A stretch of DNA of 25,166 bases from Rozella allomycis CSF55 (Eukaryota; Rozellomycota), in assembly GCA_000442015.1 (NCBI GenBank), contig KE560902.1, forward strand, positions 1 to 25,166. Reading direction: 5' to 3'. Both the position numbers and the translations under genes were made by a program. The notes under the pieces were generated by a model that worked only from the letters and a program-made list of their open reading frames with translations, did no database searches and was not told where the DNA came from. Below are positions 1 through 24,500 of this stretch, piece by piece (within the stretch, counting starts at the first letter, position 1; each line of letters begins with the position of its first letter).

Positions 1-1771
1 CTGAAAAGCTGTTTGAACCCATACCAATTAACATTTTTAAAGGAAAATAAAAAGTACCTCAAGAATCTACTTTAATGTCTAAGCCTTGCCCATATGTCTT
101 TGTAAGTTTCAGACTTCCCTTTAACAAAGACTCTTTCTGAATAACTTGGATGAAGCTAATTTAAGTAAACTTGACGAGATAAAAAGTTCTCAGAAAATAG
201 TGTTTATCTCAACAACATCCTCAAAAGTTTTGTCTCGGGTTTCCAAAAAATATTCAGAAGCACAAGTCATATCTCTTGATATTGAGTGCTCGGAATGTAA
301 AAACGTTATTTATTTAAGTAGCTACCTTTATATACGTTTTAGATAGAAAAAGGATGCCATCTCTTGACTATTCAAGACCTAAATGTTGCTGTTATCAATG
401 CAAAATATGATGAGTGGGAGTATTTGAAAGACTCTAATTTGGATTATGTTACAAAATCGTCCCTAATATCATTCAAGGAGGTCTTGGCAAATCATGACAA
501 GCCGATAGATTTATTTTTAGCTGAACCATTATCAACTATTTTCCCTAGAGATTTTCTTGGGCGAATAGCAGATCCGTACCTTCAGTCTATAATTAACTTT
601 GAGCCTTTTTACGAGATTTATAAAAATTGCAAAAGAAGAACAAGAATGTTTGCTTGCATGGATGAGAATTGGGAAGGAACAGTTTCATGGAGCAATGGTT
701 CAAATTTATACTGTAATTTTGGGAAATTGGGGCTTTATAATAATATTTCTGTATGTTGTTTTATTCATATTGAAATTAGGAATGCAGTGTGGAGATCTGC
801 AACATACTTCAGATAGATGTTAGCATCAATGACCCAACTATACCTAGTAAAAGAGACAGAGTGTATAATCAACCACCAGAAGGATATGTATGCAGAATAT
901 GCCAGAGTTCAGATCACTACATCAAAGAATGTCCAAAGAAAGTAAAAGAACCATTGGGGAAGCGAAATAATCACAAAGTAGTCAAATCTGAATGTTGGTT
1001 TTGTCTTGGAAATCCCAATGCATCCACTCACCTTGTGGCATCAGTTGAACAAGAAGTGTACCTTGCATTAGTAAAAGGCCCTTTAGTTAAGTTTCATTGT
1101 GTTATTGTACCCATTGAACATGTTTTGTCAAACGAAATTTATACTCCTAATTTACACCAACAAATAATGCAACTTAAAATCAGATTTGAAGAGGCTTTGA
1201 ATTGCAAATCTGTTCTAATTGAAGTTTTTCATCAAAATAAGGCATCTCATTCTTATGCCACAGTAAGTCATTTTCGATGCTTTTNCAATTTACACCAGCA
1301 AATAATGCGACTTAAAACCAGATTTGACGAGGCTTTGAATTGCAAATCTGTTTTAATTGAAGTCTTTCATCAAAATAAGGCATCTCATTCTTATGCCACA
1401 GTAAGTCGTTTTTGATGCTTTTTTAGATTGTTCCATTGTATGAAGAAACACAGTTAGAAATTGTGTACCAAAATTTTATTAATCAAGCTATATATGAAGG
1501 ATATTCAAAGTCAAACAACATATTGAACTCAGAAAAGCCCTGTTTCTTTAGGGTAACGATTACGAGTCTGGAACCTTTGATATTTCTCGTTCCGTCATCT
1601 AAAAGGATAGATTTACAGTTTCCAAGGTAAATAATGATACATTTTTTAACTAGAAAAGTACTGGCTTTAGCATTAGGTGTTCCCGAGAAAATTGAATGGA
1701 GAAATTGTCAGCAAACTCAGGACGAGGAACAAGCTTGGGCCGACGAATTGAAAGAGAAATTAAATAAATAA
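1..1771 (+). CDS. CWF19L1: CWF19-like protein (Drn1/CWF19L1 family), 5' end outside window
   Basis: Spliceosome- and lariat-associated protein of the CwfJ family, expected in the nucleus with the debranching machinery. Reading from the left edge in frame 1, I place introns at 54-83, 102-129, 318-346, 751-779, 1401-1426 and 1627-1653 (26-30 nt each); the second exon would be an 18-nt microexon (84-101). The encoded order matches the family: the end of a metallophosphoesterase-like domain (NVIYL then KKGCHLLTIQDLNVAVINA), a CCHC zinc knuckle (CRICQSSDHYIKEC, near 892-933), CwfJ_C_1 (ECWFCLGNPNASTHLV), then CwfJ_C_2 ending in LQFPR, KVLALALGVP and IEWRNCQQ. The stop is 1769-1771. An N at 1285 is flanked by a repeated 136-bp piece, so one copy of that exon is probably an assembly artefact. 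The family assignment is firm; the first two introns are less certain than the others. Confidence 0.85.
1149..1422. repeat. Tandem near-copy across assembly gap N1285
   Basis: Positions 1149-1284 and 1287-1422 are the same sequence with roughly seven or eight substitutions, separated by one N. Both copies encode the same piece of the CWF19-like protein and both include the following splice donor. Only one copy fits the protein family, so this looks like two unmerged contig ends or alleles rather than a real exon duplication. Confidence 0.85.
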
Positions 1772-14559: not shown

Positions 14560-14854
14560 ATGAGTCTTAATCAAAGGGAGCAAATATATTACACCATTGA
14601 ATCATCCGAGGACAATGAAACGTCAAGCGAAGTCTCCTCAATAATGTCTATATAGCATTGACGTAGACATGAATGCACCACCTTTTACAGCACTGGCAAC
14701 CAGTGATGGCATCTAAGATGATGTGCTCATCCACCGAACGCTCTCTGAACTACTTGGGTTTACGCAAAAATGCTGTGTGTCCATCCGCACGGATCATGCA
14801 TCCAAAGCCAGTATTGGCAAACAATTGGCGACATCCATTGCCAACGGACGTGAT
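14560..14854 (+). pseudogene. 5' part of broken Holliday-junction resolvase gene (putative)
   Basis: A coding-like stretch beginning MSLNQREQIYYTIESSEDNE at ATG 14560. It shifts frame near 14650, has an in-frame TAA at 14714-14716, and then reads DDVLIHRTLSELLGFTQKCC and SKASIGKQLATSIANGRD up to 14854. There the LTR element begins. The last reading frame continues exactly into the resolvase catalytic region after the element (GAT codon at 14852-14854 and again at 15824-15826). The segment SELLGF...SKASIGKQL loosely resembles the SAP-type DNA-binding domain that precedes the catalytic domain in some fungal Cce1 proteins; that match is weak. Confidence 0.5.
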
Positions 14855-14857
14855 GTG

Positions 14858-14996
14858 TGTTAGAATCCAAATTCTAACATGATATTTCAGATTCTACAGT
14901 CCGATATTTCATATATAAATAAAGAACAGAGACACGACACTAGTCGTGTTAACTCACCATACACTTTTACGGTTTTTTCTTAACTAGTGCGTAACA
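14858..14996 (+). repeat. 5' LTR
   Basis: Begins TGTTAGAAT and ends TAACA. It opens with an inverted repeat (TGTTAGAAT, 4-nt spacer, ATTCTAACA; 14858-14879). It contains an ATATATAAAT TATA-like box (about 14911) and, just downstream, a 7-bp hairpin stem ACACGAC/GTCGTGT with a 4-nt loop. Confidence 0.7.
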
Positions 14997-15002
14997 TTTT
15001 TA

Positions 15003-15145
15003 CACGACTACTATAACATGACTAGTGCACCGAACTACGACGAACTACACGNCTTTAACACGACTAGTATAACATAACTAGTGCTTAACACTTTAACACG
15101 ACTACTATAACATGACTAGTGCACCGAACTACGACGAACTACACG
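15003..15145 (+). repeat. Leader repeats and duplication across gap N15052
   Basis: Between LTR and gag there are near-repeats of about 35 bp built on acacgacta-ctataacatg and actagtgc. The piece from tacacgacta to gaactacacg occurs on both sides of the N, including the gag start codon (ATG 15018 and ATG 15112). The second copy leads into the open frame. The doubling around the N is probably an assembly effect; the shorter internal repeats may be real. Confidence 0.6.
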
Positions 15146-15720
15146 CTGCTTATCGCGCTTTGCAGCAAGAACTGAACGAACTAAGACTCCAACAACCGAT
15201 CCCAGCAAACGTTGCACCGGCAGTTTCCAGCAAGGAACCTAAGACGGCAGACCCACGCTTCTACTCTGAGGGACCACAAGAACTCAGGGAATTGTTACTC
15301 CAGCTCGAGCTTTCCACGCAACGCAACCGTCACGCTTTGACACTGAAGCCAAGAAAGTCGGACATGCCGCCAGTTTCTTACGAGGCGCCGCTGCGAAATG
15401 GTTGACAACCTTTTGGGCCCAGCCAAATAAGTCCTTCCAGGGGTTTCAGGAAAAGTTGCAAGAACAATTTGGAATTTATGACGAGCAAGAAGACGCTACT
15501 GAAAGAATGCTGAACTTGAAGCAAGGGAAGTTGACTGCTGCCGCATTCGTAGCGGAGTACCAACGACTCTACCCATTGACTGGATGGAACGAAACCGCTG
15601 TGAAACATACCTTTCTGAAATCGTTGAATCATGAATCAAGGATTTGCTTGTTGGGAAACTTGAGAAGGACGACTCTCTTGAAAAGTACTTTAAGATGGCT
15701 GTTCGCATGGATGAACATCT
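15112..15720 (+). pseudogene. Retrotransposon Gag (Ty3 type), frameshifted
   Basis: Starts MTSAPNYDELHAAYRALQQ with a short coiled segment, then the capsid-like region. In the original frame it reads LRELLLQLELS; a one-base loss in the T run at 15311-15313 moves the match to the next frame, which reads RFDTEAKKVGHAASFLRGAA and KWLTTFWAQPNKSFQGF. This pattern (RF, K-V-x-x-A, L-x-G-A-A-x-x-W) is typical of Ty3/gypsy capsids. A second shift near 15650 moves into LVGKLEKDDSLEKYFKMAV. The frame then stops at the N at 15721. No zinc knuckle is seen. A non-functional remnant. Confidence 0.75.
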
Positions 15721-15721
15721 N

Positions 15722-15821
15722 TACAGTCCGATATTTCATATATAAAAGAAAAACGACACGACCCTTGTCGTGTTAACTCACCAAATCACTTTTACTGTTC
15801 TTTCTTAACTAGTGCTTAACA
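15722..15821 (+). repeat. 3' LTR, 5' end missing at gap
   Basis: Matches 14895-14996 of the 5' LTR, including the TATA-like ATATATAAAA, the same ACACGAC/GTCGTGT stem with a different loop (cctt instead of acta), and the final TAACTAGTGC-TTAACA. The first ~37 bp expected from the other LTR are absent because the assembly gap lies there. Confidence 0.75.
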
Positions 15822-15823
15822 TT

Positions 15824-16421
15824 GATCAATATCTGCTACCGATTGACATTGGCACATCATTGTGCATATCTTTTGTTGGATCAGCGCCACAGTTGTGTTT
15901 TGAAATGGGGGCTCCAAAATGTAGTACGTGATAACGGATATCATCACGAACTAATTTCTGTGGCAAACAATCTAAACAAAATTAAACATTCTATTTCCGT
16001 AAACTTCGCGGACATTTCAATCCTCATCGAAAATCAATTTATAGATTCCCTAAAATTCCGCAGGGCAAGCATCCAACGTAACCGATTAATAATGGCACCG
16101 CTAATAGCAGTAGTTCCAGATCAGTTAAAATGTCAAATAGTTGGCGCATCATCAATGTGTGCTTGGATCAAGGCTAGATTCGGGCAGAAATACAATGCAA
16201 CCAACTATACGATTGAACTCGCGGGAAACATGATTCAAGATGGCACTGTGCAGTGTATCGGTGATGCGACATTGGTGTGGGACACGGCAGCGAAACGAGA
16301 TGATTTGGCAGATGCATTAGTACAGGCGGTAATGGTTATGAAAGGATTGGAACATCGAAGGATTCTTTTTAAACAAGTTAGTGGGAATATTATGACGCAT
16401 ACAAACTTGACAGATCCTTAA
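15824..16421 (+). pseudogene. Holliday-junction resolvase catalytic domain (Cce1/Ydc2-A22 superfamily), broken
   Basis: RNase H-fold endonuclease that cuts four-way DNA junctions. After the LTR element the frame reads QYLLPIDIGTSLCISFVGS, the first strand with the catalytic Asp (IDIGTS). It meets TGA at 15929-15931; a frameshift between about 15905 and 15928 carries the match to the next frame, which reads DISILIENQFIDSLKFR (catalytic Glu in LIENQ), RASIQRNRLIMAPLIA and finally KRDDLADALVQAVMVMKGLE, with the paired Asp of the last motif. All four acidic positions of the family are therefore visible despite the break. Two origins are possible: decayed host mitochondrial resolvase, or a gene of a mobile or viral element. 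Base composition favours the second. Confidence 0.7.
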
Positions 16422-16610
16422 TCTAAATATAAAATGATTATTGTAAATTACATACCTCGTATCTTTGATCTTTGGCTTTTTTCTCCCTTCCCTAAATCGT
16501 ATTAAAATAGATGTTGAAAAGCCTAATTAATCAATTACTCGATTGATTAGAAACTATAAATAATTTAACTTTCCAAAAGTGTATTTAGTCTTTTACATCA
16601 TACAGGGGTT

Positions 16611-17904
16611 ATGTCATAACAGTTACATCTGGAGGAAGATAATACGGACTATGAGGTTGCAGCCGACGATGAGCTCGAGGCGGTCGAGGAGTTGAACAAT
16701 TTTGACGCTTTGATGCAACTACTATCTGGGAACTCTGAAGATGCCATTAATCAATTAATGGAATTAGCAAACCTTGACATAACGACGCCTGAGATGGGGA
16801 TTGCGGACCTATACTAAGATATTGGAATCTTTACGATTGGAGAATGTGAGCGCATTCGAAAAATGTCGACGAGAGGGCGGCCGCAAGGCACAGGCCGATG
16901 TGGAAAATGAATTCGTTAATTACTGCAAACTTTATACAAAGGAACCATCGTGAGTAAAGTCAATTTATACGAGTTTATTCAATGGTTATCACAAGCGGGG
17001 GATGGCATATTGGCTTTTCGAACCATAAAGCAACATGTATTTGGGTTGGTTCGGTTATGGAATCAACAAAAGCTTACAAATTTGAAACTAAAAGCCGACG
17101 GCATTTCTTATGATGCTGATATTAAAATATTACTAAAACGTCATGCGCGACAATGTGTGGCGGAGCAGGGTTACCATCGACGATTTATTGATGTGGTGCT
17201 TGCAACGTCTCTTGATAATAGATACACAATGCAAAATCGTATTGACATTATTTTGAGATCTTTCAGGTGCAGTGACTCAAGTAGAATTGTTCCAGGAATC
17301 GGTTTACGCGACGCCTTTATGTTAGCACTTCTTGCTCGGACAGGGTTGAGAGGTGAGGAGGTGCGCAAGGTATCATGGCGGCAGTGTCAGCCTTACACGT
17401 TTAGGCACAGGCGTTCTGTTGAACATAAAGGAATGGTTGCGATGCTTGTTGAGAGACAGTAAATGAAGGACGACCAAACGAAATTGGTATTATACTTCAC
17501 AGAGATCCCAACGTGTGTGCATTATGGTGGTTTCCTCTCAAACGGCATTACGATTTTGTTGTTTTGTTGAAATCTCAGGGAACAAAATTGATTGGAACAA
17601 CCCGGCAGCAGTGTTCCAATTAATGGTGTGGTCTTCAGGTAAAATTCTAACACATACTATAGGCGCATCATCCCATTACAAACCCTTAAACGAATGTTAG
17701 CAAGGCTTACGTCTGAACTTCAGTAAAAGCACCCATTTAGGTCGCTCCAATTGTGACCGAAATCTCCAGGCTTTAGGGGTGGCAACGGAAGACATTACAA
17801 TATGGTTAGGGTGGACGACTGAATCTGCCACATTAGCTACATGCACCAACGACCCTATTATCAGGTTTGTGGAAGCGCAAGGTATCGTCCAAATGAAGTT
17901 ATGA
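16611..17904 (+). pseudogene. Crypton-type tyrosine recombinase (Ndc10-like), broken
   Basis: DNA-integrating recombinase of a Crypton element. Successive frame pieces are: an acidic N-terminal stretch (EEDNTDYEVAADDELEAVEE, stop near 16815); RKAQADVENEFVNYCKLYTK (stop 16951-16953); a core-binding region from 16950 (YEFIQWLSQAGDG, FRTIKQHVFGLVRLWNQQK); the first catalytic Arg in ARTGLRGEEVRKVSW (about 17335-17375); an Ndc10-like piece in another frame from about 17469 (GRPNEIGIILHRDPNVCALW); and the HxxR box THLGR at 17731-17745 followed by LQALGVATEDITIWLGW. The protein ends at TGA 17902-17904. The usual nucleophilic Tyr after the LGW motif is not seen (LATCTNDP). With at least four frame breaks, this copy cannot make the enzyme. 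Confidence 0.75.
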
Positions 17905-20335
17905 TCCTTGTCATTTAAAAATCAATGTAAGTAAATAAATATATTTTCATTAATAGGTTCCGGATAGGTTTGGAATAAGATGTCTTCAAATTTTCGGAGA
18001 TAGCATTTCACGAAGGCGAGGAAAGGTATAATTGCATCTGAAACTTTTTGACCATGCTCATTGAATTTCGAAATAATTTTGTCAGTTATTAATTGTACGT
18101 TTACAACCTTGCGTCTTGTAACGGCCCGTGTAATTCGGGGTCGTTGATTGCATATCGGCAATACATGTCAGGACGCTGTGACTTTGGGGGAAACGGGCAA
18201 ATCAATTTATTGGTTAGATGGACGCGATAAACGCATGTGTTGTTAGCCCTTGTACCGTCGACATCATGTGCAGGGTACGAACCTAGGTAGTAGAGGACGC
18301 GTGGCTGGTTATCGATGCATTACGTTTTTTTTGTGGTCATTTTATGATGTGTAAAACGGAGAGAATGTTCGCAAGCAAGCTCTTTGTGTGTTGTAATTCT
18401 GGTGCGCACCCCGCGAACGACGTTTTAGCAACGGTAAGTGTCTGTAGAAATCCGTCGGTACCTGAACACATTCTACCTAAAGTAGTTGATCATCAAACCC
18501 TGCAAAACGGTAAAATATGCAATTATACAATATGATGGTGTAAAAAATAGACAGGAATGTTACAAAGTCAATAGTACTTAAGCCAAACAGGGTAAGAATT
18601 CTATTTACCAATAGTAAAGAAATTCGGGGTATATTCGTGTTACTCGTAACGTAAATATGGTAGTGCATGATAGCGCCGAGGAGACGACAGAAATGTTAGA
18701 GGTTTGTGCTACAAGGGTTAACGCCGGAGTTACAGGTGGCCGCGATCACAAAATGTAGCGTCGAATAGTGTACAAACCTGAAATGGTCGACCTGACCAAA
18801 GCCGCATTGTTTCTAAGTTTAATTATTTTGGAAATATACTGAAATATATTTAGCTAACAACGGAAGCCATATATCGTTCCCGATAAATAACGAAACCGAC
18901 CACAATAACGATAATGATGCAGGAGTTTAGGTCCAAGCGTCAGAGTTAACAGGAAGTCTAACTATATCTAGCACGCAGCGTCACGGAATGCTGCCATTTT
19001 TCAAAACCAACCCCCAGGCAAAACGGACAAACGGCCATATGTTACTGAAACGACATACTAGTCGCACGGTGGGGGAGCTACGAATGGTTGTAAGATGTTG
19101 ATATTGCTGCTCGCAAATATATTGCCAAACGAACAATGCGGGGCAAGCCGTACAGGCCACATTTAAGACTTAACGTAATACCAACGAAAACAGACGTTTC
19201 CATATCTCGAGCTTACTGAGTATTTATTGACAGTCAGACACCCTCGCGTTAGTACCAGCATCGATCTCCGATTTCACATAGTCTTTATCGTCTGCGACAA
19301 CTCGCCACGATCCAGTTTGTGTACACCATAACCGACCGCAATAAATAGTGTCTTGCGACCTCGCGTGGCGGGCATGACTGCATTCGTTCCTGAAGACGGT
19401 TTTGACGCAATAACACATACCTTTTACCAACGGACATTTACATCGCTTAGTACGCCAGAAATTAAGCATCGTCGTCCATATTTTCAGCGTCATATTTGGG
19501 TTTGCCACAATAATATGCACTAAGATAATTAACTAAGACATGAAGAGACGGAATCTTGTCGCACGATTGCCCACGAACGTATTTCTGATGTCACACGTGC
19601 ACTTGCGGGATGTTCGGTAGACATCACGAGTCAAACGTTGAGTTGCAATCTATAATGTTTTAAGTGCGCGCCTAACATATAGCTGTAGCAAAGGTGGACG
19701 CGTCACATAAAGTCGATTTGTGCCCAGGGGTTAGGGGATGGGAATGCACAAATGCACAATGCCTTGGGTGAGTACGTGCCCACGTTATGAGTGCCACACC
19801 ATTCAACATAGAGTGTTGAAAATCTCATTATGACTCAAATTCAAATATGTCATACATAGTCCGTTGACGGTGACGTAGGGCGATTTTACAAACGCCCACC
19901 TTCGACCTTGATAAGTGTCAATTTCAGTTCATAGTTGACCAGGAGCACCCATTATGTTAGTCCATACATAGCGAATGTTCATAAAGTTTCCGCCACTCCA
20001 AGGTGTACTTAAATAGTTGTATTTGCCTCTCCAGGTCAAATACGTTTCCAATGTCGCTTGATTTTGTGTTAAAAGGTGTGCCTATATATATACATATTTA
20101 AATTGGATATGTTTAATATATCTAGGCCACGTGCAGACCGCTGGGCCCGTATATTCCTGCATGCCTCTTGTCGGAAAGATGCCACTGCGCCGCAGTGACT
20201 TACAGGGTACGACAAACTACATCTTGCGGACTCGTTTGGTAGTTTAAAATGATTCCTTACATGATGATAGACATTAAGCAATATCGATTTTGCCACAACC
20301 TCACAACCTTGCAGTATCACAGGTACCTTCCGGAG
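17905..20335. other. Gene-free stretch, compositionally distinct
   Basis: About 2.4 kb with no frame longer than roughly 100 codons on either strand and no recognisable protein motif. Hand counts of single 60-base lines give 28 G+C at 18661 and 30 at 19021, against 14 in coding sequence at 8041. I saw no tandem repeats, terminal repeats or tRNA-like structure. One short minus-strand frame at 17922-18161 reads protein-like (VNVQLITDKIISKFNEHG) but has no ATG. It may be the non-coding rest of the recombinase element, or old decayed foreign DNA. Confidence 0.5.
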
Positions 20336-20425
20336 GTATCCAATTTCTATGGATGGATTTGTTTCATTCAAGTTAAAATCAAACGAAAATAATTTGTTTT
20401 CAAATTCCACTTAAAGGAATTGTTT
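20336..20425 (-). pseudogene. Fragment of F-box-family gene (copy of 22546-22622 region)
   Basis: The minus strand reads VEFENKLFSFDFNLNETNPS, nearly the same as VELEGKFSFDLNLNKTNPS in the large F-box gene. The DNA match runs from about 20346 to 20425. The similarity ends abruptly at about 20335, where the G+C-richer island begins, so this is a breakpoint. Confidence 0.7.
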
Positions 20426-20514: not shown

Positions 20515-20690
20515 GGTAATATGTTTGCCTTTCGTTTTTATGTTTTTGTTGCTTGAAAGGGGTGGAACAGAATACTTTAATAGAATGTTCTTCTCCCGGC
20601 TTATATTACCTGGTTTATATTTAATGACAAAAACCAGAATCGATAATGAGTGTAGCCAATTAATCTCGGTGCCCATTGTGTAGTCAAAAA
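20515..20690 (-). pseudogene. Second F-box-family fragment (copy of ~22012-22056 region)
   Basis: The minus strand reads REKNILLKYSVPPLSSNKN, matching WIKNILLEYSIPRLSSIDY of the F-box gene's last exon. At the DNA level tgcttgaaaggggtggaaca and gaatactttaatagaatgtt correspond to the stretch at 22015-22056. In the intact gene this piece lies to the left of the piece copied at 20336-20425 on the plus strand; here it lies to the right. The two fragments are therefore rearranged relative to their source, or come from a paralogue. Confidence 0.6.
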
Positions 20691-21590: not shown

Positions 21591-24500
21591 TCAATAACAC
21601 ATTCCTTTCAGCTCCNCAAACGAAACATACAAGACATGATACTTTTCCAAATATTCGCAATCACCAAAAGAAAATCTGCGAGTGGAATACCAGAATCCTT
21701 TTAAAGAGAAAATGGATGACTTCTTTTTCTGGAAATGGCCAACTAGTGAAACTTGCGCTGGATTTTGGCTGAATGTTTCTTTTAGTAATGAAAGGAAACT
21801 TGGTTGTAGTAGTTGAAATGGAATGTGTGGAGTAATAAAGTTTTCTGTGGACTGGATATTCTTTAAGAAATGGGCTACGTTTTCTGGCTGTATAGTTGAC
21901 AGACTAGACAAATAATTTGATAAAGAAGCAGGTAAATTGTTATTGTTGTTGGTAGGTTCCACATTGACCAATTTGTAATTGATTGGTTGATAATCAAAGT
22001 CTATGTAGTCGATGCTTGACAGGCGTGGAATGGAATACTCTAAAAGAATGTTCTTGATCCATTCTCTGCTTTCAGAGGGTTTAAACGATTGATAAAATGA
22101 CTTCCAATTCTTATAGTCAAATGAAAATGAGAATATTCTCGTGAAGTGCAGATTGAAAAGAAAACAATAATCATCAAACATTCTATTGCCACAAATATTT
22201 GATATTTCACGAGCTTTTAATATCAATAGGTTTAAATTCAAAGGATTGAATTGCTTTATGTGATGAAAGTCGTAGAATAAAAGATGAATGAGAATGCCAG
22301 GAACAAAAAGATCTGGTTCTGATAAAGTTAAATCTAAGAGTGCGTTTAATCTGCTTTCAATCAATATTCTAAAAATAGATTTAAAAATATTCTTACGGTA
22401 TAAAATTTGTGAAATTTAGTAAATGACACGTGATGGTATTTTCAAGGGTTGCACTTTCAAGGGTTGGAGATTCACACAGGAAAATAATCCTTCCAGGCAG
22501 TTTTAAAGCTTTATTAATATTTCGTTTTTCAGTGATAAAGTTTATTTCTGTTGATGGATTTGTTTTATTCAAGTTTAAATCAAAAGAAAATTTGCCTTCC
22601 AATTCCACTTGAAGGAATTGAAGAATATTTGAATCTGACATTAGATTTAGAAATGGGATGATTAATTGAATTATTTTGGAATCAAAAGTTTCAATTAAAG
22701 TTAAAATATTCATTTGATTTGAATTGTTGATCATTTTCTTTAAAACTGAATGTCTATTGATTTCACCTTTATTGAATTCCACCAACAAGGAATTTCTTAG
22801 TCCATTTCTAACATTGTGAACAAATTCATTGCTTATTAATTGTTGCAACATAATTTTCTCATTAACTAAAAGAGAATCTTGAATAAATCTAAAAAATATT
22901 TTATAAACACATTTCTTCTTTTCAAATAAACAACGATTCATTAAATATTCAAACACAATCTTTTCAATCACTGAAATTTCAGTTTCATTCACTTTAATAA
23001 CAAAATCAACCAAATCAATTTCATTTCTAAATTCAAAAGCAACATTGGCAAGAAAGTTGAATTGTTTTTGAAGTTTATTACGCAATGAAACAATCTCATC
23101 TGAAATTTTATTCTTTTCTTTAATTTTTCTTTCATTTTCTTTATGAATTTTATTAAATCTTAGAAATTCTAATCTGCCAGTTTCTGTTTCAATTGAATCT
23201 GGAAACTGAATAGATTCTGTTTCAATTTCTTTTAATTTTTTGAAATAATCAAAATTCTTTTCAATGTAAAATCTCACAAACAAATCACAAAAATGTTGCG
23301 GTGAAACATTAAAACTAAAATTAGAATTACCGTCTGCGCCACGCATCTTGTGATACATTTTAGTGAAAATTGGATCTTTTGACTCTGAAACAACTTTATT
23401 TCTTTCATTTCCCAAATGTTCCAATATAATAATAGATTTCCATGAACAATTATCAAAAGCATTCCAATCAATTCGACAGCCAGTAATACCAGATTGTTTG
23501 TTTAGACAATCCATCGAATCCCACTGAATTCTATTATTAAACAAATATTCTTTAATTTCATTTTCATTAAATTTATTCAAATAGAGAGCTATAAACAACG
23601 AATTCCCAATCACATTCAATATTTCCCTTCTACAATCATCAATTTTATCTTCCAGAAATGATTTATATTCTTTAACCTGAAAATTTATACTTTGTTTAAA
23701 CAAATACTGCTTTAGTGAATCTCTTGAAAACTTTAGACATGACAGCTGCTTCACAAACTCAATAATCCGCAATATTCCACTATCCCCATCAACATTCTTT
23801 ATCACATTAACATCCTTTTGTTTATTTTTATGGCTAAAAAGCTGTTCACTCTTTTGTATTTGGATTCCCTTCTTCTTTCCATGTTTCAGAAATTTCAGAA
23901 TCTGATAATGAAGAGGAAGATTGTAAACAGAAGTGTTGAGAACTTCTATAATAAACTTGTGTAGATAAAACTTGTTATTTATTTGAATGACACAATTCCT
24001 ATCATCGGTAGGAAACATCTTTTCCAATGAAATCAATGTCCAATTCAAAATCTCCAATGATTCCACAAACTTTAAACTTTTCGTTTGGCCACTTGAAATC
24101 ATCTTTTTTAATTCGTCATATTCAACCATCTTTTCAGCAAACTGTTTTACAAATCCATTCATTCCAAATTTTCTAATTCATTACAAACAAATTAACATAC
24201 TTTATTAAAACAATACAAGTTTCCAACTGAATAGATTCTAAAACAATCTTCTTTTCTTTCAACTTTACATAAACATTCTTAAAATAGACCTGCCACGGAA
24301 ACTGCTCGATTGGTTTATGCAAATACCCGATCCCAAACTTGTAACACCGGTACATCCAAAAGTTTGAATTATTAACCATATGATGCCATCTTCTACTCAC
24401 AACAACCAATTTAGAAATACAATCATCTTCTAAATGATAAAAGATGCAGTCTCTAATATCTCCAGGGAAGTTTCCCATCAAATCAAAAGAAAAATCTTTC

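What the first reader, a model, noticed from the sequence alone, without database searches (positions are those of the whole stretch)
14560..17904. Resolvase and Crypton recombinase side by side: possible remains of one mobile element
An RNase H-fold Holliday-junction resolvase and a Crypton/Ndc10-like tyrosine recombinase lie about 190 bp apart on the same strand, both decayed and both G+C-richer than the surrounding genes. Both protein families work on four-way junctions. I know of no named element that carries this pair, so an undescribed element, or a fragment of an integrated virus, is possible.
Basis: inference. Interest (0 to 1): 0.75.

Follow-up and report, generated by a model that had tools for sequence, protein, structure and literature searches.

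The report
Crypton transposon with a resolvase gene
In the fungal parasite Rozella, a decayed jumping gene of the Crypton type sits next to a gene that looks like a cutter of four-way DNA junctions, and a similar pairing recurs elsewhere in the genome, which suggests a transposon that carries two DNA-handling enzymes instead of one.

Summary
Both decayed genes are real. The window (contig C84, Rozella allomycis) holds a Crypton/Ndc10-type tyrosine recombinase (YR) relic, 42% identical to an open frame at C61. About 200 bp upstream on the same strand lies a relic with the D, ExQ and KRDDxxDA motifs of RNase H-fold Holliday-junction resolvases, with an LTR retrotransposon in front of its catalytic part. 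The pairing recurs: C61 has YR and a resolvase-like frame tail to tail; C48 and C132, found with the C61 resolvase alone, both carry YR relics in that convergent order. So all 4 resolvase loci found have a YR nearby; YR loci C164, C64 and C62 show no resolvase. Against one clean unit: the window order is head-to-tail, window and C61 resolvases lack pairwise similarity, the resolvase class rests on motifs and weak profile hits, and termini are undefined. C48 and C61 lie between direct tRNA copies: suggestive only. Best reading: a CryptonF-like transposon with an accessory junction resolvase, a new variant of a known kind, not seen in my literature searches.

The parts
14561..14857 (+). putative 5' part of the resolvase gene (ATG, acidic/serine-rich stretch, then a short open stretch), broken by stops
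   Evidence: position only; no significant similarity to the C61 N-terminus (581 of 1000 shuffles as good); inference
14858..14995 (+). 5' LTR of an inserted retrotransposon; ends TGTTAG...TAACA placed by eye
   Evidence: repeat pair 14895-14998 / 15722-15823, 88% alike
15097..15720 (+). gag of the inserted LTR retrotransposon (decayed; the rest of the element is missing)
   Evidence: PF19259 7.5e-12, PF03732 7e-9
15722..15821 (+). 3' LTR, starts at an assembly N (15721)
15822..16421 (+). catalytic part of an RNase H-fold Holliday-junction resolvase relic; the D-motif is in another frame than the rest
   Evidence: motif triple, pattern starts 15842 / 16023 / 16293; no profile match
16620..18104 (+). 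Crypton/Ndc10-like tyrosine recombinase relic; TGLRGEEVR at 17340, THLGRSN at 17731, SYMHQRP tyrosine motif (Y at 17838) in a shifted frame
18105..20340 (.). gene-poor, G+C-rich dead DNA; 18480-18957 resembles C132 DNA next to a Harbinger-type transposase (class seen by eye); membership in the element not shown

Best explanation
The window holds a dead copy of a small Crypton-type DNA transposon of Rozella allomycis that carries, besides its tyrosine recombinase, an accessory RNase H-fold Holliday-junction resolvase. Proposed mechanism (inferred): the YR excises the element as a circle and joins it to a short matching site, passing through a four-way junction; the resolvase cuts junctions that the YR leaves unfinished, or resolves multimers of the element. 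The copy then decayed by stops and frameshifts, and an LTR retrotransposon landed in the resolvase gene. Shown: the two relics, and the recurrence of a YR beside a resolvase-like gene at three other contigs. Inferred: the enzyme activities, the joint movement, and that the window and C61 resolvases play the same part.
For: YR: P0001 (C61) passes PF16787 NDC10_II (2e-7) and keeps the arginine, HxxR, HW and tyrosine motifs (roles recalled); its relative P0002 has a weak GCR1_C tail (0.0013, below Pfam's cut-off), and the C48 relic retains that tail (70% of 27 residues). Pairing: C61; C48; C132, where the resolvase part (79% of 222 bp) and the YR N-terminus (74% of 139 bp) match C61 DNA in the same order and orientation (182 and 92.5 bits against a maximum of 35.4 in 60 shuffles). 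C48 and C132 were drawn in by the C61 resolvase alone, and both have a YR piece. Random placement of 3 non-window resolvase loci and 7 YR places puts 2 or more within 2 kb in 3 of 200000 draws. Resolvase class: phrog_18317 'Holliday junction resolvase' is the best PHROG for the C61 frame (0.0079 and 0.0053), and this frame is its only match in the six-frame genome (0.019). More than one copy, each with a YR, speaks against a host gene.
Against: Window and C61 resolvases have no pairwise similarity beyond chance (783 of 1000 shuffles score as high). Order differs: head-to-tail in the window, convergent at C61, C132 and C48. No shared termini or empty site found. YR loci without a detectable resolvase: C164, C64, C62. 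The C61 resolvase has G+C 0.303 while its YR has 0.386; its third motif reads QSHVD, not DDxxD. PHROG E-values are weak, and families of unknown function come close (phrog_7315, 0.016 and 0.011); Pfam gives no resolvase (best BBS2_hp 0.04). The C61 YR lacks the GCR1_C tail. Structure models were useless (mean pLDDT 32 and 36). Uniform placement ignores that mobile DNA clusters.
Confidence: 0.58

Rival explanations
1. Two separate mobile elements: a Crypton, and a resolvase-bearing element or virus fragment, that pile up in the same gene-poor graveyards of a compact genome.
For: YR without detectable resolvase at C164, C64 and C62; order differs between the window and C61; other transposons lie in the same places (LTR gag in the window; a Harbinger-type transposase at C132, seen by eye).
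Against: All 4 resolvase loci found have a YR piece within 2 kb; C132 and C61 share both genes in the same order and orientation at DNA level; random placement makes this unlikely, though clustering would raise the odds.
Confidence: 0.25
2. The C61 resolvase is a host gene (mitochondrial Cce1/Ydc2 type) beside which a Crypton landed; C132 and C48 are duplicated pieces.
For: Host-like G+C; long open frame; no other resolvase found in the genome (rang in no control genome, so they show little).
Against: Relics on other contigs each have a YR relic; no PF09159 match; no homologue at E <= 1 among 384 candidates in the protein search, although a conserved fungal gene would be expected to have some.
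Confidence: 0.1
3. Remains of an integrated giant virus or polinton-like virus that carried both a YR integrase and an A22-like resolvase.
For: Phaeoviruses carry a tyrosine recombinase and an A22-like resolvase (PMC13236599, passages read).
Against: Only the two frames between the tRNA-Asp pieces at C61; no viral gene among the 10 window proteins scanned, six of them outside the pair and the gag; no relative found in viral contigs; the YR is of Ndc10/Crypton type.
Confidence: 0.05

Closest known systems
CryptonF DNA transposons of fungi and oomycetes
   Same: YR of Ndc10 type; weak GCR1_C tail in P0002 and in the C48 relic; small. Some oomycete CryptonF and some CryptonS carry a second gene, a C48 peptidase (PMC3212892, passages read).
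   Different: Here the second gene is resolvase-like; short terminal direct repeats were not found; the words resolvase and tRNA have 0 occurrences in that paper's main text.
A22-like / Cce1-like RNase H-fold Holliday-junction resolvases
   Same: Order of the D, ExQ and DDxxD motifs in the window (family motifs recalled).
   Different: No Pfam match; C61 departs from the third motif; sits beside a transposon recombinase.
Integrated phaeoviruses (Ectocarpus)
   Same: Encode both a YR and an A22-like resolvase (PMC13236599, passages).
   Different: Virus genomes with many genes; the Rozella unit seems to have two.
tRNA-targeting integrative elements of prokaryotes (recalled)
   Same: Two loci lie between direct copies of a tRNA gene, as at attL and attR.
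   Different: None found at the window, C132, C164, C64 or C62; direct tRNA pairs also flank other genes in this genome.

Membership tests
Crypton (CryptonF) | tyrosine recombinase with R...HxxR...H/W...Y | tested here: met
   P0001, P0002; P0003 has F for the tyrosine; PF16787 above cut-off for P0001; present in pieces in the window
Crypton (CryptonF) | C-terminal GCR1_C DNA-binding domain | tested here: inconclusive
   P0002 PF12550 E 0.0013, 19.4 bits against a cut-off of 23; tail match in the C48 relic; missing at C61, not found in the window
Crypton (CryptonF) | short terminal direct repeats (6 bp in most fungal Cryptons, PMC3212892) | tested here: inconclusive
   termini could not be located; few and diverged copies
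Crypton (CryptonF) | no reverse transcriptase within the element | tested here: inconclusive
   none recognised among the frames listed at C61, which were not all scanned; the gag in the window belongs to an inserted LTR element
RNase H-fold Holliday-junction resolvase | acidic motifs D-I-G, E-x-Q, DDxxD in order | tested here: met
   window only: 15842 / 16023 / 16293; 0 of 100 shuffles, 0 of 12 other loci (post hoc pattern). C61 lacks the third motif in this form
RNase H-fold Holliday-junction resolvase | profile match to a resolvase model | tested here: inconclusive
   none in Pfam or NCBIfam; phrog_18317 at 0.0053-0.019 for C61 only
RNase H-fold Holliday-junction resolvase | RNase H fold | tested here: inconclusive
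   window ORF folded without alignment, mean pLDDT 32; the C61 frame is outside the folding tool's stated sources
tRNA-targeting integrative element | element bounded by direct copies of a tRNA gene or its 3' part | tested here: inconclusive
   C48: tRNA-Val copies identical over 78 bp, no N in the 10 kb; C61: tRNA-Asp and a 61-bp copy, but Ns abut; none found at the window, C132, C164, C64 or C62
integrated virus | viral hallmark genes near the pair | tested here: inconclusive
   none among 10 window proteins scanned, none recognised by eye at C61; not every frame was scanned

The most novel reading that the evidence does not exclude
Rozella carries a two-gene eukaryotic integrative element, Crypton YR plus its own Holliday-junction resolvase, that inserts at tRNA genes the way bacterial and archaeal islands do, and whose YR makes only a single strand exchange that the resolvase completes; the differing gene order would reflect YR-driven inversion.
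Probability: 0.15. Interest if true: 0.8.

Novelty: new variant of a known kind. Interest (0 to 1): 0.55.

Why it matters
How Cryptons move is little tested (recalled). A Crypton with its own junction resolvase would say that the second half of the YR reaction, or the handling of circular intermediates, is a bottleneck that the element solves itself, and would give a defined pair of proteins to assay. It would also be a Crypton family in one of the deepest fungal lineages.

Tried and rejected
Integrated virus: set aside for lack of recognised viral genes and of viral-contig relatives. Single-copy host resolvase: unlikely, relics on three contigs. Structure prediction of the window resolvase ORF and of P0001: too poor to search folds with, so no fold search was made. 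Window and C61 resolvases as close homologues: no pairwise support. A resolvase start at C48 about L014:4690 with an acidic stretch like those of C61 and the window: spacing fits, but the best Z in any frame was 1.77 at C48-B and 2.35 at C48-A, so not claimed. Window 18480-18957 as a third gene: it matches C132 DNA next to a Harbinger-type transposase (75.4 bits against a maximum of 35.4 in 60 shuffles), so probably another transposon. Direct tRNA pairs as proof of targeting: weakened by tRNA-Ile and tRNA-Lys pairs around other genes at C140 and C210. PF09159 and PF04848 genome searches found nothing, but rang in no control either. PDB sequence searches gave no resolvase or recombinase.

Full report
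What is in the window. The window is contig C84 of a 9.97-Mb, 213-contig genome whose C61 protein is named Rozella allomycis CSF55 in the protein database. From about 14.3 to 20.4 kb lies gene-poor, G+C-richer DNA. In it a resolvase-like relic (catalytic part 15822-16421) is followed about 200 bp later, on the same strand, by a tyrosine recombinase (YR) relic, 16620-18104. An LTR retrotransposon piece with a Ty3-type gag sits at about 14858-15821, in front of the catalytic part; single Ns at 15052 and 15721 lie at its repeats and look like assembly seams.

The recombinase. The window YR is 42% identical (E 1.0e-33) to an open frame at C61. The database model of that gene, P0001 (595 aa, O9G_003398), passes the Ndc10 domain model PF16787 with 2e-7. 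Two protein searches, which see only candidates sharing short words, gave as relatives only itself and two more Rozella proteins of another locus-tag series, P0002 and P0003. P0002 has a weak GCR1_C tail, a mark of CryptonF (PMC3212892, passages read). Catalytic motifs (roles recalled) are present in P0001 and P0002; P0003 has lost the tyrosine. The window keeps them in pieces, the tyrosine motif in a shifted frame at 17838.

The resolvase. The window relic has the three acidic motifs in order but no resolvase profile match. The C61 frame has the D and ExQ motifs but a changed third motif; its best PHROG is phrog_18317, Holliday junction resolvase, at 0.0079 and 0.0053, with a family of unknown function close behind (phrog_7315, 0.016 and 0.011). 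It is the only match of phrog_18317 in the genome (0.019). Window and C61 resolvases do not resemble each other beyond chance in a pairwise test. The class is therefore likely, not proven, and the two may be different branches.

Does the pairing recur? At C61 the resolvase-like frame and the YR stand tail to tail. A genome search with the C61 resolvase alone gave two further loci, C48 and C132. At C48 a YR relic, GCR1_C tail included, runs towards the resolvase relic in the same convergent order; another YR relic lies upstream on the other strand. At C132 two DNA blocks, the resolvase part at 79% and the YR N-terminus at 74%, match C61 in the same order and orientation, with about 1.8 kb of the C61 sequence missing between them. 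So 4 of 4 resolvase loci found have a YR piece nearby. Two of these, C48 and C132, were found without using the YR; the window was chosen for its pair, and the C61 resolvase was seen because it lies beside the YR. Random placement would give 2 or more of 3 in 3 of 200000 draws (uniform placement, so it flatters the case if mobile DNA clusters). Against this, no resolvase was detected in the stretches searched around the YR pieces at C164 and C64 and around another Ndc10-type YR at C62, and the window order is head-to-tail.

tRNA genes. The 5.1 kb at C48 lies between two tRNA-Val genes in direct orientation, identical over 78 bp (no N in the 10 kb). At C61 the pair lies between a full tRNA-Asp and a 61-bp copy of its 3' part (97%), but Ns sit beside the tRNA pieces. 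None was found at the window, C132, C164, C64 or C62. Control: among 66 tRNA matches listed (63 of 711 candidates scored; the C48 and C61 tRNA genes are themselves not in that list, so it is incomplete), two other close direct pairs of one tRNA, at C140 and C210, enclose other genes (malate-dehydrogenase-like and copper-ATPase-like, seen by eye). With the base rate from those two pairs raised tenfold, 2 or more of 6 loci (C62 left out) would be bracketed with probability 5e-4. The incomplete list, the control pairs and the seams keep this at suggestive.

Reading. The best account is a CryptonF-like transposon with an accessory junction resolvase, of which the window holds a dead copy. Rivals are given with their weights. 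In print: searches for Crypton with Holliday junction resolvase (2 papers), with RuvC (2), with Cce1 or tyrosine recombinase (32 papers, 12 listed, none of the 12 holding Cce1), with tRNA gene (9), and for Rozella with Crypton (0) or with tyrosine recombinase (1) or transposable elements (15, 10 listed) showed no such element in what I saw. Passages of PMC12220804, PMC13236599, PMC10871703, PMC8869645, PMC3212892 and PMC5718144 were read; the rest only as listings. Most subscription papers are not in that library; the Rozella genome paper (recalled) was not looked up.

Noticed in passing
window 14858-15821: LTR retrotransposon fragment (Ty3-type gag, two LTRs) in front of the catalytic part of the resolvase relic.
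   Followed up: yes
window 1149-1284 / 1287-1422: 136-bp tandem copy, 94% alike, in or next to the CwfJ-like frame, with an N at the seam (1285): perhaps an assembly artefact.
   Followed up: no
window 20343-20422 / 22544-22620: 85% direct copy of the 3' part of the frame 22393-24177; a second short pair at 20550-20592 / 22013-22055.
   Followed up: no
L051:4307-5599 (C76): Open frame of 431 aa matching the GCR1_C-like tail of P0002 (9e-7) without a significant YR match, near a tRNA-Leu: perhaps a domesticated Crypton piece.
   Followed up: partly
L036 (C62:3948-6811): Another Ndc10-type YR in repeated pieces (PF16787), matched by P0001 only at 0.51.
   Followed up: partly
L006:4574-4600 (C61): A 27-nt stretch with a stop in the YR gene, removed as an intron in the database model.
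   Followed up: partly
L017 (C140) and L018 (C210): tRNA-Ile (100% over 76 bp) and tRNA-Lys (98.8% over 85 bp) genes in direct orientation about 3 kb apart around other genes.
   Followed up: partly
window 18480-18957 and L015:6689-7244: 58% similar over 559 aligned positions, inverted, beside a Harbinger-type transposase at C132 (class seen by eye).
   Followed up: partly
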